From IMG/VR virus record IMGVR_UViG_3300031227_000467, positions 1 through 22,668 of that record: a stretch of DNA of 22,668 bases; one strand, written 5' to 3'. Under the pieces are notes generated by a model. That model saw only the letters and a list, made by a program, of their open reading frames with translations, had not been told where the DNA came from and ran no database searches. Positions 2,424-20,413 of the stretch are shown here, piece by piece. Within the stretch, counting starts at the first letter, position 1. Each line of letters starts with the position of its first letter. The position numbers and the translations under genes are program-made. This stretch comes from a virus.

Positions 2424-3947
2424 TCAGCGCCTCGATGTGTTCATCTTCTTGATTGCCCGGCTCAACCGCTCCATCTCGGCCTTCGTGACCTTCTGGTTCT
2501 GGAGGATCCCCGCGAGCATCGGGAGCAGCTCGTCGCTGAGCACGCCCACCTGCTCCGGGAGTCCCTTCCCCTCCTCTGCGTCCTGCTCTGTCGGCCAGGC
2601 GGGGCCCTCACCCTTCCGGCCCGGCGCGCCAGCCTTCCCCCCGCCCTTCTCCGGATGCCGCTCCTCGTATTGCCGCCACTGCTCCGCGACCCCGGCCTCC
2701 GTCACTGCGCCGCTTTCCTCCCGCAGCCGTTTGGCCTCCTCATTCGCAGCCTTCAGATCCGCGATTGCCTGCTTCGGATCAAACCCGATTACCTTGTCGA
2801 ACCCGACCAAGGCCGGCGACACGAACTTCAGGCCTTCCCGTAGCTCGAGGGCCTCGAGCCTCAAAAATCGCATAGCCGATGCAACCTTTGAGGCCGCGTT
2901 CACGCCGAACTCGGCCGCTCGCGCCGCCCCGGCTCCGAGGCTTGTCATCAACCAGTCCAGGGGTTCGATCCCCTCCGCGAATTTCTTGAGGCCGAGGTTT
3001 GTGGCGCCGGTCGCTTCTGTCAGCAGAAGCAACCCCACCACAAACGTCGCCAGCCCGGCCACGGTCCCGCCCGTCACGGTCAGCAGCGCCTTGACCAGGC
3101 CGATGACGCTCGCGAGGGCGCCGGCCAGGGGGCCGAGCACGGCGACGATCGCGAGCGTCACGGCGACGACCTTCAGACTGGTCAGGATGCTCTCCTTCTG
3201 CGCGTCGGTCAGATCCCTCACCCACTTGGCCGCCGCGCCGATCTTTGCTATGAGTTTTTCCAGACCCACCGCCCACGTGTCGGTGCCGAGGATCTGCTGG
3301 CCGAGGGTCTCCAGCAGGTCCCCGAACGTATTCTTCAGCCGGATCAAGCTGCCTTCCAAGCCCTCCGCGCGCCCCTTGGCCTGGTGGAAGCCCTTCGCCA
3401 TCAGCTCCGTGACGATGGCCAGCTTCTCAGTCGGGTCCTCCGTCTGCCGCAACGCCGGCACGTAGCGCTGAAGGACCGTAAACTCCCCCTGCATCGCGAG
3501 CGCCGTGTAGCGCAGAGCCGTAGCGAGGTCCATCTCCAGCGCCTCTGCGAGCCCGATGGCGCCCTCGATCGCGTCGTCCATCTTGTCCGCGGTGATGCCG
3601 AGGTTCAGGGCGTTCGCGATCATCCCCTGCGTCGCCTCATCCCCGTAGACCGTGACCTTCTGGAGCCCGGCGGCCAGGTCCTTCATCCGATCGTAGGTTT
3701 CCGTCGAAGCGTCACCAGCGCCGATCAGCGCGTCCTTGAGCTTCCGGTCTGCCTTCTCCTGCTCCATGCTCTTGTATGCCACCGCGCCGACCGCTGCGGC
3801 CAGGCCGAGGAGCCCACGCCTGGCCGTGCGGGACGCGCCGTCGATGTTGTCCTTGAACTTCAGCAGACCCTTCTGCACGCCACCCAGGGTGCCCGTTACC
3901 TGGTCCCTGAGCTGCAGCAGGATGCCGTATTTGATCGTCTCAGCCAT
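2424..3947 (-). CDS. Tail tape measure protein
   Basis: This 507-residue protein sets tail length and is threaded inside the tail tube. The N-terminal 60 residues carry an amphipathic, Gly/Ala-rich start. A long helical region with a typical tape-measure pattern follows (residues 85-215, including DEATQGMIANALNLGITADKM and LIRLKNTFGDLLETLGQ). A very hydrophobic stretch lies at about residues 258-310, and the charged helical C-terminus ends KKMNTSRR. At roughly 0.15 nm per residue this predicts a short tail of about 75 nm. The ATG at 3947 overlaps the TAA of the -1 frame of the tail chaperone, the classic arrangement for a frameshifted G-T protein followed by the tape measure. Confidence 0.93.
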   Translation of the reverse strand: MAETIKYGILLQLRDQVTGTLGGVQKGLLKFKDNIDGASRTARRGLLGLAAAVGAVAYKSMEQEKADRKLKDALIGAGDASTETYDRMKDLAAGLQKVTVYGDEATQGMIANALNLGITADKMDDAIEGAIGLAEALEMDLATALRYTALAMQGEFTVLQRYVPALRQTEDPTEKLAIVTELMAKGFHQAKGRAEGLEGSLIRLKNTFGDLLETLGQQILGTDTWAVGLEKLIAKIGAAAKWVRDLTDAQKESILTSLKVVAVTLAIVAVLGPLAGALASVIGLVKALLTVTGGTVAGLATFVVGLLLLTEATGATNLGLKKFAEGIEPLDWLMTSLGAGAARAAEFGVNAASKVASAMRFLRLEALELREGLKFVSPALVGFDKVIGFDPKQAIADLKAANEEAKRLREESGAVTEAGVAEQWRQYEERHPEKGGGKAGAPGRKGEGPAWPTEQDAEEGKGLPEQVGVLSDELLPMLAGILQNQKVTKAEMERLSRAIKKMNTSRR

Positions 3948-15881: not shown

Positions 15882-16107
15882 TACCAAAACCCGACGCGCA
15901 AAAGACCCGGCCAGCGAGGCCCCGCGTATCCGGGCCTTCTGCTCCCGCAATGGTATCTCCCGAAGCGCCCTGGCCGAATCCGTCGGCACCGGGCGCCGAT
16001 ACATCTCGGACGCCCTCCACGCGGACACCAACGGGAAGGCCGTCAGTGCGGCCCAGCTCGAACGTATCTGGGCCGCAGTGCTCACGCTCGCGAGGCAATC
16101 GGCATGA
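15871..16107 (+). CDS. Ner-like small DNA-binding protein
   Basis: This 78-residue basic protein starts at ATG 15871 after AGGAG. The centre is a helix-turn-helix-like stretch (RIRAFCSRNGISRSALAESVGTGRRYISDALH, about residues 20-50). As first gene of the early operon and next to the repressor, it matches the position and size of Mu Ner, which represses the early and repressor promoters. Its stop overlaps the transposase start (ATGA). Function rests on position and fold. Confidence 0.75.
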   Translation: MSVNTKTRRAKDPASEAPRIRAFCSRNGISRSALAESVGTGRRYISDALHADTNGKAVSAAQLERIWAAVLTLARQSA

Positions 16108-18146
16108 GCGAACACACGGACCTGATGACCTTCGAGGACGCAGCACAGGAGCTCGGCATCACACTCCGCTCTGTCCGCCGACTCGTCCGCCTCGGACGCC
16201 TCCCCTCAGAGCCCATCGGCAGACACCCCAACGGCAAGGTCGCGCACGGGATACCCCGTAGCACCCTGAGCTTGTCGAAGGACCTGGTCTGTGTGGCACA
16301 GCCGCCCTCGGCTGTGAGGAACGCCCCCATACCCGACCGTGTCCCGCTCACACACGACGGACTCCCCGACGTCGCCGCCATGCGCGCCCTCGGACTCGAC
16401 TCACACGCGGACGAGTGGGACCGCCGAATGCGCATCGTCGCGGAATACTCCGACCTCCGGATCCGCGCCCCCCACGGAGGCAAGCGCGCCGCCGCACAGC
16501 TCGTCGCCCAGAAATACAGCGAAAGCCTCTCCACCATCTACCGCTACTGGAAGGACTGGCGCGAGGGCGGCCCGGCCGCACTGCTCCCGGCCTGGCAGAC
16601 ACAGGCCGGGCGGACCACCCTCCCGGCCGATCTCCAGTGCCAGGTGCGCGAGTTCTGGCTCAACTCACGGCGCGCATCCGTCGCCCAGGTCTACAAGTCC
16701 GTCGTTCTGCCCTACTATAAGGATATTAATACGCAACCCCCACACCGGAGCACGATCGCCCGATTTCTGCGCAAACACGTCCTCCCGCTCGAAAAGACCT
16801 TCTGGCGCGAGGGCCGGCGCGCATACCAGGCCCAGGCAGCCCCGAAGGTCGTCCGCGCACTCCCCACCGAACCTAACGATTGGTGGTGCGCGGACCACCG
16901 CCTCTGGGACGTCATGGTGGTCGTCCCTGATGGACGCGGCGCGGGGTGGGGCAGACACGATAAGCTCTCATGCCCGTGCGGCTCCGGACGCGAGCGGCGG
17001 CGCTGCTGCTCCGTCCGACGCCCCTGGCTGACCATGATCGTAGATATCGCGAGCGCCGCATTCGTCGGCTACCGGATCAGCCTGGTCCCCACGGCCGCCG
17101 GCGTCTGCCACGCAATCCGATCCGCAATCCTGGACTACGGCGTCCCCCGCCATTTCTACCGCGACAATGGCCGCGAGTTCACAGCCCGCCGACTCGGTGG
17201 CCGCGCCGACAGGCTACTCAAGCCCCGCAGGACCGACCTCGAGAGCCGGCAGCAGTGGCCCTGCGCTGTCCCCGCCGACGTCGAGCAAAGCGGCGTCTGG
17301 AGCGCCCTCGGCGTCGAGGTCGTCACGGCCCTCCCTTACCACCCCTGGTCCAAGCCGATCGAATCGATATTCCATGCGTTCTCCCAACAGTGGGAAAACC
17401 TCGTCCCCGGCTGGAGCGGGCGCGACGCGAAGCAGAAGCCGGAAGCCCTCGACTCGCAGATCCGCTCAGGCTCGCTCCTTCTACTCGATGAGTTCGCCCA
17501 GGTCTTCGCACAGGAGCTCGCCAAGTGGCACGCGGACCACGTCTGCGGCGAGCGCGCGCAGACCCCCGATGCCTTCCACGCGGATTACTTGCCTCGCGCC
17601 GTCGACCCGGCTACCCTGACCTTCCTGATCCAGGACGTCAGGGAGCGCGTCCACGTCGAGCAGTCCGGCATCTTCCTCCAGGCCGGGGGCACCGTCATGC
17701 GGTTCTGGACCGACGATCTCGCCTTGTATATTGGCTGCGTCGTCACCGTCCGATGGGACCCGGACGACCCCCGGTGCATCTGGGCCTACACGCCCGACAA
17801 GAAGGTCGTGGCGGTCCCGCCGGCAACCGACGCCGAGTGGGGCGCGTGGGGCGAGCCCAACGCCGCATCCAAACGCGCAGAGCGCATCCAGCGCAATTTC
17901 CTCAAGGCCCGCGCCTCCGAGATGCGCGGCGCGACCCCCATCGAGCGCCTCGACCCCGTCGGCGCCGTGGCGCTTATCCGAGACCGCCAGGCGGGCATCG
18001 CAGAATCCGCCGTCTCCCGCAGCGCCGCCGATGAGCGCCTGCGCGAACTCGCCGACGAACAGCAACGCGCCCTCGAAGACGCGAAGTCCAAGAAGCCTGA
18101 GAAGTATACCACCGTCTACGACGACGAGCTCTCGAAGATCGCCTGA
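16104..18146 (+). CDS. A: MuA-type DDE transposase
   Basis: This 680-residue transposase cuts phage ends and joins them to target DNA. Order of parts: an N-terminal winged HTH (LMTFEDAAQELGITLRSVRRLVRLGRLP, residues 7-34); repeat-derived peptides STLSLSKD (53-60) and VAQPPSAV (64-71); an HTH near residues 126-152 (GGKRAAAQLVAQKYSESLSTIYRYW); and the RNase-H catalytic core. Probable DDE residues are D264 (WWCADHRLWD), D354 (HFYRDNGREF) and E420 (WSKPIESIFHAF). Between D264 and D354 lies a SEC-C-like zinc motif, CPCGSGRERRRCC (290-302). A Mu-type C-terminal barrel follows at about 510-600, then a charged tail ending VYDDELSKIA. The last parts would contact the B protein. Confidence 0.95.
   Translation: MSEHTDLMTFEDAAQELGITLRSVRRLVRLGRLPSEPIGRHPNGKVAHGIPRSTLSLSKDLVCVAQPPSAVRNAPIPDRVPLTHDGLPDVAAMRALGLDSHADEWDRRMRIVAEYSDLRIRAPHGGKRAAAQLVAQKYSESLSTIYRYWKDWREGGPAALLPAWQTQAGRTTLPADLQCQVREFWLNSRRASVAQVYKSVVLPYYKDINTQPPHRSTIARFLRKHVLPLEKTFWREGRRAYQAQAAPKVVRALPTEPNDWWCADHRLWDVMVVVPDGRGAGWGRHDKLSCPCGSGRERRRCCSVRRPWLTMIVDIASAAFVGYRISLVPTAAGVCHAIRSAILDYGVPRHFYRDNGREFTARRLGGRADRLLKPRRTDLESRQQWPCAVPADVEQSGVWSALGVEVVTALPYHPWSKPIESIFHAFSQQWENLVPGWSGRDAKQKPEALDSQIRSGSLLLLDEFAQVFAQELAKWHADHVCGERAQTPDAFHADYLPRAVDPATLTFLIQDVRERVHVEQSGIFLQAGGTVMRFWTDDLALYIGCVVTVRWDPDDPRCIWAYTPDKKVVAVPPATDAEWGAWGEPNAASKRAERIQRNFLKARASEMRGATPIERLDPVGAVALIRDRQAGIAESAVSRSAADERLRELADEQQRALEDAKSKKPEKYTTVYDDELSKIA
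16264..16316. repeat. Two repeat elements inside the transposase gene
   Basis: CCCTGAGCTTGTCGAAGG (16264-16281) is followed by a perfect hairpin, CACAGCCG-CCCT-CGGCTGTG (16297-16316). Both stay in frame between the N-terminal HTH and the rest of A. I remember both motifs as recurring short repeats in environmental genomes; that is memory, not a search. Confidence 0.7.
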
Positions 18147-18163: not shown

Positions 18164-19075
18164 ATGGCCCATAAGTGGACGGATGAGGAGCGAAAGACGG
18201 TCCGCGAATGGTCGGCCTTCGCCGACCTCCACGGCATGAGCCGCGGCGACCAGTGCCACTTCCTGCGGGTGAGCGGCGCGACCATCAGCCAGCTCTACAG
18301 CGAGACATATACCGGCCGCGTCGCCCGCATCACCGAGCAGATGCGGCGCCACCTCCGCCGCGAGCGCCTTCGTGCCCTCGCGCCCCAGCCGCCGCCGTTC
18401 GTGAAGACATCCGTCGTAGATGAGGTTGTCCGCGCCCTCGGCATCGCCCAGCAGGAGCGCGTCATCGTCCTCCTCCTCGGGCCAACAGGCGTCGGGAAGA
18501 CCGTCGGCATCCGCCGCTACTGCGATGCCGAGCCGGACACCATCCTCTTCACCGCCGGCATCGGCGTGAGCCCCTGGAGCGTTGGCCGCGAGATCGCGAC
18601 GCAGCTTGGCATGTCATCCCACATGAATGTCTACCAGCTGCGCCAGGCCGTCGCGAGTGACCTCCGCACCAGACCCCGCCTGGTCGTCGTCGATGAGATT
18701 GATTACGCGCACGAGCCCGTCGTCCAGTATCTCCGCATGATCCACGACGAGGGGGGCGTCGGCATGGTCTTCGCCGGAACGGCGGCATATCTCAGGCGTC
18801 TGCGGGGCTATCGCAGCGCAACGGTCCGCCAGGTCCTGGGGCGCATCAAGCACGCCGTCCACCTGCCCCCTTGCTCTGATGATGATCTATCCGCCATCCT
18901 TGCGCCGTATGACCTCGCCGAAGAGGCCCTCGAGGCCATCGTTGATGGCGCGCACGGCGAGGCCCGCCGCGCCGTCAACTGTATCGTCGCTGCGCAGCGG
19001 ATGAACGGGAAGCACGGCATTTCACCCGAGCTCGTGCACCGGGCGTACGAAACCCTCATGCCGTGGGAAGATTGA
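18164..19075 (+). CDS. B: MuB-type AAA+ ATPase, target-DNA selector
   Basis: This 303-residue protein, preceded by GGAGAGAGG, has an N-terminal HTH (SRGDQCHFLRVSGATISQLY, residues 26-45). The AAA+ core has Walker A GPTGVGKT at 106-113, Walker B LVVVDEID at 173-180 and a GTAAYL sensor segment near 205-210. In Mu, B forms ATP-dependent filaments on target DNA, activates A and gives target immunity. The gene lies 17 bases after A, as expected. Confidence 0.94.
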   Translation: MAHKWTDEERKTVREWSAFADLHGMSRGDQCHFLRVSGATISQLYSETYTGRVARITEQMRRHLRRERLRALAPQPPPFVKTSVVDEVVRALGIAQQERVIVLLLGPTGVGKTVGIRRYCDAEPDTILFTAGIGVSPWSVGREIATQLGMSSHMNVYQLRQAVASDLRTRPRLVVVDEIDYAHEPVVQYLRMIHDEGGVGMVFAGTAAYLRRLRGYRSATVRQVLGRIKHAVHLPPCSDDDLSAILAPYDLAEEALEAIVDGAHGEARRAVNCIVAAQRMNGKHGISPELVHRAYETLMPWED

Positions 19076-19174: not shown

Positions 19175-19831
19175 ATGGGTAAGGACAAGAAGGACGTGCC
19201 GGTGGAGTTGAGCGTGCGGGTGACGTTTGGCGAGCCCCTGCTGGGGACGGCGCCGCTGGACCCGGAGATATTCAAGGCATACGTTACGAAGGGAATCCTT
19301 TCCGAGGAGGAGGAGGTGGGGAGCTTGCCTGGTGTGGATGAGGATGAGAAGCCGGAGGCGGAGCGCAAGCCCAGCCAAGTTACGGGCTTCCACCGAGAGA
19401 ATGGGCATATCTTTCTCTATGACTACCAGGTGAAAGGGTTCTTCAAGGACGCGTGCGGGTCGTTGAAGCGGGCTGGATACACGATGAGCAATCCATTCAC
19501 GGCCTACAAGAAGAAGATCGACGGGCTGGTGTTCGTGGAGCCGCGGCGGATCCCGATCGCGTTACCGGATGGGTGCGACGTGGAGAGCATCGAGATCCTG
19601 AGCCGGCCGCTGAGGGCCAGCACACCGCAGGGGGACAGGGTTGCGATCGCGTCCTCCGAGGTAGCGCCGGCGGGCTCGACGATGGAGTTGCGGATTAGCT
19701 CGTTGAGTCGGGCAGCGCTGCCGGCGGAGCTGGTGCAGGAGTGGCTCGGCTATGGCGCGCTGCGCGGTTTTGGCGCGTGGCGCAATGCCGGCTACGGCCG
19801 GTTCACGTGGGAGGCTCTTTCGCAAAGCTAA
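19175..19831 (+). CDS. Early phage protein with a RAMP-like glycine-rich loop (function unknown)
   Basis: This 218-residue protein starts at ATG 19175 after GGGAG. The N-terminal strand (VELSVRVTFGEPLLGTAP) leads to an acidic insert (residues 43-62), then LYDYQVKGFFKDACGSLKRA (81-100), YKKKIDGLVFVEPRRIPI and PLRASTPQGDRVAIASSEV. It ends with GYGALRGFGAWRNAGYGRFTW (192-212). The segment GFGAWRNAGYG fits exactly the GhGxxxxxGhG consensus of RAMP-fold (Cas5/Cas6/Cas7) RNA-binding proteins, and it lies near the C-terminus as in Cas6. I believe homologues occur in Firmicutes phages but cannot check. No CRISPR array or other cas gene is visible. Codons end more often in G than in the A and B genes, which hints at separate ancestry. 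RNA binding is inference. Confidence 0.8.
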   Translation: MGKDKKDVPVELSVRVTFGEPLLGTAPLDPEIFKAYVTKGILSEEEEVGSLPGVDEDEKPEAERKPSQVTGFHRENGHIFLYDYQVKGFFKDACGSLKRAGYTMSNPFTAYKKKIDGLVFVEPRRIPIALPDGCDVESIEILSRPLRASTPQGDRVAIASSEVAPAGSTMELRISSLSRAALPAELVQEWLGYGALRGFGAWRNAGYGRFTWEALSQS

Positions 19832-20055
19832 GGCTGGGCGGCGCGAGGCACCGCCGTGCGAGGCAAAGGCAAGGCCTGGCATAGCGTAGCAAAGGCTGGG
19901 CGTCGCATGGCGGAGCCAGGCGCGGCGATGCGCGGCGAGGCAAAGCAAAGGCCTCGCACGGCGATGCATCGCAGAGCAAAGGCGGGGCAAGGCAAGGCGG
20001 TGCAAGGCAAAGGCGGGGCGGAGCAACGCCGTGCGAGGCAAAGGCAAGGCAAGGC
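19822..20055. repeat. GC-every-five-bases array (45 units)
   Basis: From 19822 to 20055 a GC dinucleotide recurs every five bases (GCNNN), with seven units stretched to six: six are GCAAAG and one is GCTAAG. The 45 units average 5.16 bases. The variable triplets are purine-rich on the plus strand (AAG, GAG, GGG, AAA). One 23-bp stretch is repeated exactly at 19853-19875 and 20028-20050. The array starts inside the last codons of the upstream gene, includes its stop, and ends 28 bases before the next ATG. It is neither a simple tandem repeat nor coding-like (period 5, not 3). Confidence 0.93.
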
Positions 20056-20083
20056 TTTTACAGGAGCTCAGAGGAGGAAGAAG

Positions 20084-20413
20084 ATGGCAGCCGAGATTGA
20101 CCAGGGTGGGATGCACTACTCGGAACCCGACGCGGTCGGGTGCCTGAGCGCCCTGGTGAGGCTCGGCGGGCGGGCGACGTCGAGGGAGATCCGCCGGTTC
20201 CATGACCGGGAGGCGATCCACACGAGCATCAGCAACCTCCGGGAGTATCTGCGGCGCCAGGGCTACGAGGGCGAGACGGTGAGGACGGTCTGGATGGAGT
20301 GGCGCGGGAGCGGGCGGAAGCGGCCAGTCTATCACCTGCGGCAAGACGTGCTACAGGGGTGCGCGCCGAAGCAGTCCACGCTATTCGAGACGGCGCAACG
20401 GTTCACGGATTAG
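20084..20413 (+). CDS. Small winged-helix-like protein
   Basis: This 109-residue protein starts at ATG 20084 after GAGGAGGAAG. The frame is open upstream through the GC array to 19856, but that part is array-encoded and the strong ribosome site argues for 20084. The core (AVGCLSALVRLGGRATSREIRRF, TSISNLREYLRRQGYEGETV, GSGRKRPVYHLR) has the helix-helix-wing order of a winged-helix DNA-binding domain: two helices, a recognition-like helix, then a basic wing ending in YHL. No family is recognised. It probably binds nucleic acid in early development. Confidence 0.78.
   Translation: MAAEIDQGGMHYSEPDAVGCLSALVRLGGRATSREIRRFHDREAIHTSISNLREYLRRQGYEGETVRTVWMEWRGSGRKRPVYHLRQDVLQGCAPKQSTLFETAQRFTD

What the first reader, a model, noticed from the sequence alone, without database searches (positions are those of the whole stretch)
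19822..20055. GCNNN array: GC dinucleotides every 5 (sometimes 6) bases for 45 units
Seen directly: GC recurs at 5-base spacing for 234 bp; the seven longer units are six GCAAAG plus one GCTAAG. The triplets between vary freely, so selection seems to hold the spacing and the GC, not a repeat unit or a protein. The period is not a codon multiple. The mean of 5.16 is close to half a DNA helical turn, and the 6-base units would help keep phase. The plus strand is purine-rich and would give a weakly structured RNA. A ring-shaped RNA-binding protein that reads short motifs at 5-6-base spacing (as TRAP does with NAG repeats) is one model; a filament-forming DNA-binding protein such as B is another. 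It begins inside the stop region of the RAMP-like gene. I recall similar arrays, usually mis-annotated as short hypothetical proteins, in other phages, but know of no description of function.
Basis: partly seen in the sequence, partly recalled or inferred. Interest (0 to 1): 0.92.

Follow-up and report, generated by a model that had tools for sequence, protein, structure and literature searches.

The report
Phage RNA-guide array beside RAMP gene
The odd run of GC every five bases is a string of short RNA guides next to a CRISPR-like RAMP gene in a Mu-like phage; it belongs with the recently described VIPR systems, but its guides seem to read three letters per unit instead of two and are chained end to end, somewhat as in a CRISPR array.

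Summary
In detail: 46 GC dinucleotides at spacing 5 or 6 from 19822 to 20055; shuffles reach 14. A 2026 preprint (PMC13142463) describes VIPR systems: a phage RAMP protein (Vipr) with pentanucleotide-repeat guide RNAs. The gene just upstream (19175-19831) is such a RAMP: its predicted fold matches Cas7 backbones, and profile comparison with the Vipr of phage SUSP1 gives probability 97%. Loci picked from viral contigs by GC spacing alone hold a Vipr gene beside the array in 83 of 120 cases, against 0 of 147 control loci. In the window's own clade 152 of 169 loci carry an array, always co-oriented with the gene.

It differs from the published description: the repeat is GYNNN (three variable bases, not two), and runs of mostly 4-6 units end in a hexamer GCRANG that closes each guide. 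Statistics over 162 arrays, and guides that agree only when decoded out of phase, indicate that the triplets are read contiguously. Some decoded guides of relatives spell conserved protein motifs (MATGTGKT of helicases; EWQAN of an IrrE-like peptidase). No target was found for the window's own guides. I call it a new variant of a known kind; the preprint's supplement, which may cover this type, could not be read.

The parts
19175..19831 (+). Vipr-like RAMP gene (218 aa)
   Evidence: Fold matches Cas7/Csm3; profile match to the SUSP1 Vipr family, prob 97.1, E 5.8e-11; glycine-rich loop at the C-terminus
19822..20055 (+). Guide array: 46 GC at spacing 5/6
19827..19832 (+). First hexamer GCTAAG, overlapping the stop codon of the RAMP gene
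   Evidence: 91 of 105 downstream arrays of the clade start within 30 nt of the stop
19833..19868 (+). Guide 1: six pentamers + GCAAAG; triplets TGG GGC GAG ACC CGT GAG
   Evidence: hexamer as guide end:
19869..19894 (+). Guide 2: four pentamers + GCAAAG; triplets AAG CTG ATA GTA
19895..19950 (+). Guide 3: ten pentamers + GCAAAG; triplets TGG GTC ATG GGA CAG GCG GAT GCG GAG AAA
   Evidence: no match in viral contigs
19951..19981 (+). Guide 4: five pentamers + GCAAAG; triplets CTC ACG GAT ATC AGA
19982..20012 (+). Guide 5: five pentamers + GCAAAG; triplets GGG AAG AAG GGT AAG
20013..20043 (+). Guide 6: five pentamers + GCAAAG; triplets GGG GGA AAC CGT GAG (diverged copy of the end of guide 1)
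20044..20055 (+). Trailing units GCAAG GCAAG GC with no closing hexamer
20084..20413 (+). Small downstream gene (109 aa), possible accessory gene; no family assignment, no relative in the neighbourhood of other family loci
   Evidence: only sub-threshold hits; not among recurrent neighbours

Best explanation
The array is the guide-RNA locus of a VIPR-type system in a Mu-like phage. The RAMP protein at 19175 (Vipr) binds the transcript, each subunit gripping one GY dinucleotide and presenting the next three bases. The module is about 4-6 GYNNN units closed at the 3' side by a hexamer GCRANG, so the array is a string of about six short guides. The variable triplets of successive units pair with consecutive bases of the target DNA (three target bases per five RNA bases, no skip), and binding represses genes of rival mobile elements or of the host. 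Shown here: the array, its linkage to a RAMP homologous to a tested Vipr, modular segments, and statistical evidence that the triplets come from contiguous sequence. Inferred: transcription, RNP formation, pairing, DNA binding and repression, taken over from the tested type II systems.
For: RAMP homology. Linkage: 83 of 120 loci picked by spacing alone have a Vipr gene within 1 kb, 0 of 147 controls; 152 of 169 clade loci, 166 of 166 arrays co-oriented. Module: hexamer every 4-6 pentamers and whole-segment sharing between related phages. Contiguous code: N3 to next N1 follows genomic lag-1 bias inside guides (z 5.2) but not across hexamers (z -0.6); no such lag-1 signal in GGYNN arrays; codon-table coupling across GY; out-of-phase guide agreement; N3 no freer than N1 or N2. 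Decoded motifs. Mechanism of the tested relatives: PMC13142463.
Against: No target was found for any of the window's guides, and no exact target for any guide of the clade. No expression data. The published systems have 9-16 repeats plus a structured 3' tail; here guides have 4-6 units as a rule and no tail was seen. 17 of 169 clade loci show no array within 1.5 kb. The out-of-phase agreements are few (two clear cases).
Confidence: 0.72

Rival explanations
1. It is a VIPR array that follows the published rule unchanged: only N1 and N2 of each unit pair, one target base is skipped, and N3 drifts freely because this clade does not need the first G of GGY.
For: Same protein superfamily; three target bases per unit in both models; several decoded motifs (MATGTGKT) are unit-aligned, so N3 falls on the wobble base and carries little weight there.
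Against: N3 is coupled to the next N1 like neighbouring genomic bases; the L162/L186 and L172 guide pairs agree only if N3 is read; N3 does not vary faster than N1 and N2.
Confidence: 0.18
2. The whole array is one long guide or scaffold and the hexamers only correct the register of a protein filament, as the first reader thought for helical phase.
For: Hexamers recur fairly regularly, most often after 4-6 pentamers.
Against: No sequence coupling across hexamers while it exists within segments; whole segments are gained and lost between related phages.
Confidence: 0.06
3. A DNA site, not an RNA: a phased binding array for MuB or another DNA-binding protein.
For: The array lies just downstream of a MuB-like gene in this window.
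Against: Arrays are tied to the RAMP gene and its strand in loci from many kinds of hosts and phages; variable bases carry coding-like, guide-like information.
Confidence: 0.03
4. A chance or low-complexity repeat, or part of a protein-coding frame.
For: An ORF (19856-20413) runs through the array into the next gene.
Against: Period 5 with 6-base units breaks the frame; shuffles do not come near; conserved linkage.
Confidence: 0.01

Closest known systems
VIPR type II, phage SUSP1 and P. fulva prophage (PMC13142463)
   Same: Homologous RAMP protein along nearly its full length; pentanucleotide-periodic RNA locus beside the gene; three target bases per unit; phage-borne.
   Different: GYNNN instead of GGYNN; mostly 4-6 units per guide closed by a hexamer instead of 9-16 units plus a structured tail; guides directly adjoining; probably no skipped base; no conserved accessory gene seen.
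Other VIPR types of the same preprint ('related consensus', 'staggered arrays with overlapping vrRNAs')
   Same: May include this clade.
Class 1 CRISPR arrays with Cas7-type backbones (types III, VII)
   Same: Cas7-like fold; string of guides with a short repeated element between them and turnover of whole guides.
   Different: Repeat is only six bases, guide bases are interrupted by GY every five bases, no cas1/cas2, no CRISPR repeats.
TRAP (trp RNA-binding attenuation protein)
   Same: A protein reading short motifs at 4-6-base spacing in RNA (recalled, not tested).
   Different: Different fold; the bases between the TRAP motifs are not guides.

Membership tests
VIPR | Vipr protein: single-RRM-type RAMP homologous to the characterised Viprs | tested here: met
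   hhalign prob 97.1, E 5.8e-11 with the SUSP1-type family; Cas7-like fold
VIPR | RNA locus of pentanucleotide repeats next to the vipr gene | tested here: met
   Array touches the stop codon of the gene; clade-wide linkage
VIPR | Repeat consensus GGY/NN or a related consensus | tested here: inconclusive
   Consensus here is GYNNN; third variable base G in only 20 of 38 pentamers of the window. Whether it counts as the 'related consensus' of the paper depends on the unread supplement
VIPR | 9-16 repeats followed by an invariable structured 3' tail (type II) | tested here: not met
   Segments of mostly 4-6 units closed by a hexamer; no tail seen, Rfam gives nothing
VIPR | 1-nt skip rule for DNA recognition | tested here: inconclusive
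   Statistics favour no skip; no target or assay
VIPR | vap accessory gene next to vipr (typical, not universal) | tested here: inconclusive
   No recurrent neighbour near most loci; the window's 109-aa gene is unassigned
VIPR | Expression of vrRNA and copurification with Vipr | not testable with these tools
   No expression data
CRISPR-Cas class 1 | CRISPR repeats with spacers and several cas genes | tested here: not met
   No other cas gene among the window's family hits or recurrent neighbours; array is pentanucleotide-periodic

The most novel reading that the evidence does not exclude
A branch of VIPR uses a denser, contiguous three-letter code (GYNNN) in long strings of short guides closed by a hexamer, and phages use it against conserved protein-coding sites, such as IrrE-like regulators of rival prophages and helicase genes of the HsdR (type I restriction) kind, so that one guide covers many variants of a gene.
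Probability: 0.4. Interest if true: 0.88.

Novelty: new variant of a known kind. Interest (0 to 1): 0.75.

Why it matters
If right, the reading rule of VIPR is not fixed: a relative reads three bases per subunit without a skip. Its arrays look like a form between a single guide RNA and a CRISPR array (many short guides, one closing motif, turnover of whole guides), which bears on the proposed origin of class 1 CRISPR. It also gives a simple spacing search that finds such loci at scale.

Tried and rejected
Target searches under several skip rules in 3.5-4.9 Mb of held phage and MAG sequence, five viral-contig pattern scans and a BLAST of decoded long guides in phage records gave no convincing target. 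The two hits fail at N3; hits show no more than 5 of 8 or 4 of 7 N3 matches. An apparent excess of antisense hits came partly from duplicated loci and guides shared between related phages and was dropped. A shared 18-base guide matching a rabbit-gut MAG exactly is within chance for the number of guides tested. Depletion of TAG and CTA among triplets is explained by CTAG avoidance in the array DNA and was not used. Substitution counts with loose clustering were dominated by chance similarity; the strict version is. A 16-residue reading of an L182 guide was a misparse across a 4-base unit; read by hand from the sequence the guide is eight units, MATGTGKT. The count of P-loop-like guides as such (3 against 0-3 in shuffles) is not significant; only the exact shared 8-mer is notable. 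Rfam: nothing above its thresholds.

Full report
Observation. A chain search finds 46 GC dinucleotides at spacing 5 or 6 from 19822 to 20055, with six GCAAAG and one GCTAAG as the only 6-base units. Dinucleotide shuffles reach 14 (array) and 10 (whole window). The finding is real and as described.

Context. The window is a viral record of 22668 bases of a Mu-like phage: MuA-like transposase 16104-18146, MuB-like ATPase 18164-19075, the gene at 19175-19831, the array, a 109-aa gene, then Gam and GemA. The gene at 19175 has no Pfam, PHROG, NCBIfam or PADLOC hit.

Known system. A full-text search led to one preprint, PMC13142463: VIPR, a phage-encoded RAMP (Vipr) with guide RNAs of 9-16 YNNGG repeats plus a 3' tail, reading target DNA as xNN (one base skipped) and repressing rival elements.

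The protein. Relatives were found in viral contigs, in genomes, mostly Clostridia MAGs, and in gut phage records. The alignment has a RAMP-like glycine-rich loop (consensus GIGQWRNSGKGRF) at the C-terminus. AlphaFold gives mean pLDDT 83.8. Foldseek against the PDB puts Cas7 of type VII CRISPR first, then Csm complexes. A profile search of PDB sequences gives Csm4 and Cas7 at E of about 1e-4. I located the SUSP1 Vipr from the locus layout in the paper and the visible GGTNN runs (L231:28474-29061); that identification is mine. Profile-profile comparison of the two families gives prob 97.1, E 5.8e-11, over 181 columns; smaller alignments give 90%.

Linkage. Of 120 loci picked from viral contigs only by eleven GCs at exact spacing 5, 83 hold a SUSP1-type Vipr gene, all within 1 kb of the array (median 55 bp), against 0 of 147 control loci. 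In the window's clade 152 of 169 loci have an array next to the gene; all 166 arrays are on the gene's strand; 91 of 105 downstream arrays begin within 30 nt of the stop codon, as in the window; the detector gives none in 147 unrelated and 60 shuffled loci.

Architecture. Across the clade the pentamer is GYNNN and the longer unit is a hexamer with consensus GCRANG, recurring mostly after 4-6 pentamers (2194 segments). Related phages share collinear segments that are present or absent as wholes, so the segment is the module. Substitutions per site between close copies are G 0.034, Y 0.062, N1 0.051, N2 0.084, N3 0.062: N3 is not freer than N1 or N2, though the counts are small.

Code. If triplets of neighbouring units pair with neighbouring target bases, N3 and the next N1 should show the neighbour bias of genomic DNA although GY separates them in the array. 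They do: z 5.2 at lag 1 (n 8278), at most 2.7 at other lags, 3.8 with palindrome cells removed, similar for GC and non-GC junctions. Across a hexamer the signal is gone (z -0.6, n 2189); N3 to hexamer position 3 keeps it (4.4) and hexamer position 5 to the next N1 does not (-0.1). So the hexamer seems to close a guide on its 3' side. The GGYNN arrays, read with a skip according to the paper, show no lag-1 signal at the matching junction (0.6). Codon-table coupling across the junction agrees (z up to 5.8). These couplings tell where the variable bases come from; they do not prove pairing, and near-copies of guides make the z values somewhat optimistic.

Decoded guides. Two guides of one array (L172) share AAGGAATAGGGGGA one base out of phase, and the L162 guide GAATGGCAGGCAAAC lies two bases out of phase inside the L186 guide TGGAATGGCAGGCAAACGCAC; unit shuffles give essentially no out-of-phase matches of that length. 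Only contiguous reading makes these agree. Both L162 and L186 spell EWQAN. The one near match (19 of 21) among 394 genomes lies in a 646-aa ORF with the same EWQAN and a weak IrrE-like (Peptidase_M78) match, E 0.0012, just below the curated cut-off; about one such near match is expected by chance, so the motif context, not the count, is the argument. The L182 and L215 guides both spell MATGTGKT, a helicase Walker A motif, with five synonymous differences, each in exactly eight units (no 7- or 8-residue agreement in ten shuffles). Near matches to their common pattern lie in a helicase ORF and an HsdR-like ORF that contain MATGTGKT (named by me from the sequences), and one, apparently by chance, in an RNA polymerase subunit gene. 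I treat both target assignments as leads.

The window's own guides gave no target (for the 10-unit guide; for the rest). Guide 6 resembles the end of guide 1, and guide 4 begins with the reverse complement of their common part, which helps to explain the strong predicted fold.

Verdict. A VIPR-type guide array (about 0.92 for that much), of a variant with three variable bases per unit, short hexamer-closed guides and probably contiguous reading (about 0.72 for the full statement). Transcription, RNP formation and repression are inferred from the tested systems.

Noticed in passing
window 19853-19864 and 19951-19962: GCCGTGCGAGGC and GCCTCGCACGGC are exact reverse complements, in register with the GC spacing, so two guides of the array could address opposite strands of one site or fold on each other.
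   Followed up: partly
L278, L281, L271, L250, L251 (G013, G019, G023, G048, G049): RAMP genes of this clade with one in-frame TGA or TAA inside the match: stop-codon reassignment in the phage or host, or decayed genes.
   Followed up: no
L152:4776-5963: A 204-kb phage contig with an array of 228 units, mostly GT instead of GC, and a hexamer after only 3-4 pentamers.
   Followed up: no
L001-L120: 37 of 120 loci with eleven GCs at exact spacing 5 showed no SUSP1-type RAMP in the held stretch; some may be other VIPR types.
   Followed up: no
L133:250-1104, 2884-3044, 3784-3924: One contig seems to hold both GGYNN-like runs and GYNNN segments with hexamers beside a RAMP gene of this clade: possibly two guide formats in one phage.
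   Followed up: no
L129:3128-3898: Hydrogenobaculum phage 1 gp16 is a distant relative (25% identity) of the RAMP; no GY array was found nearby.
   Followed up: partly
loci: An SSB-like protein lies in 22 of 102 clade loci and HTH regulators in 28; neither is constant enough for a fixed accessory gene.
   Followed up: partly
L185 and L206; G045: Some MAGs hold two or three RAMP genes of this clade on different contigs, as if rival prophages lived in one host.
   Followed up: no
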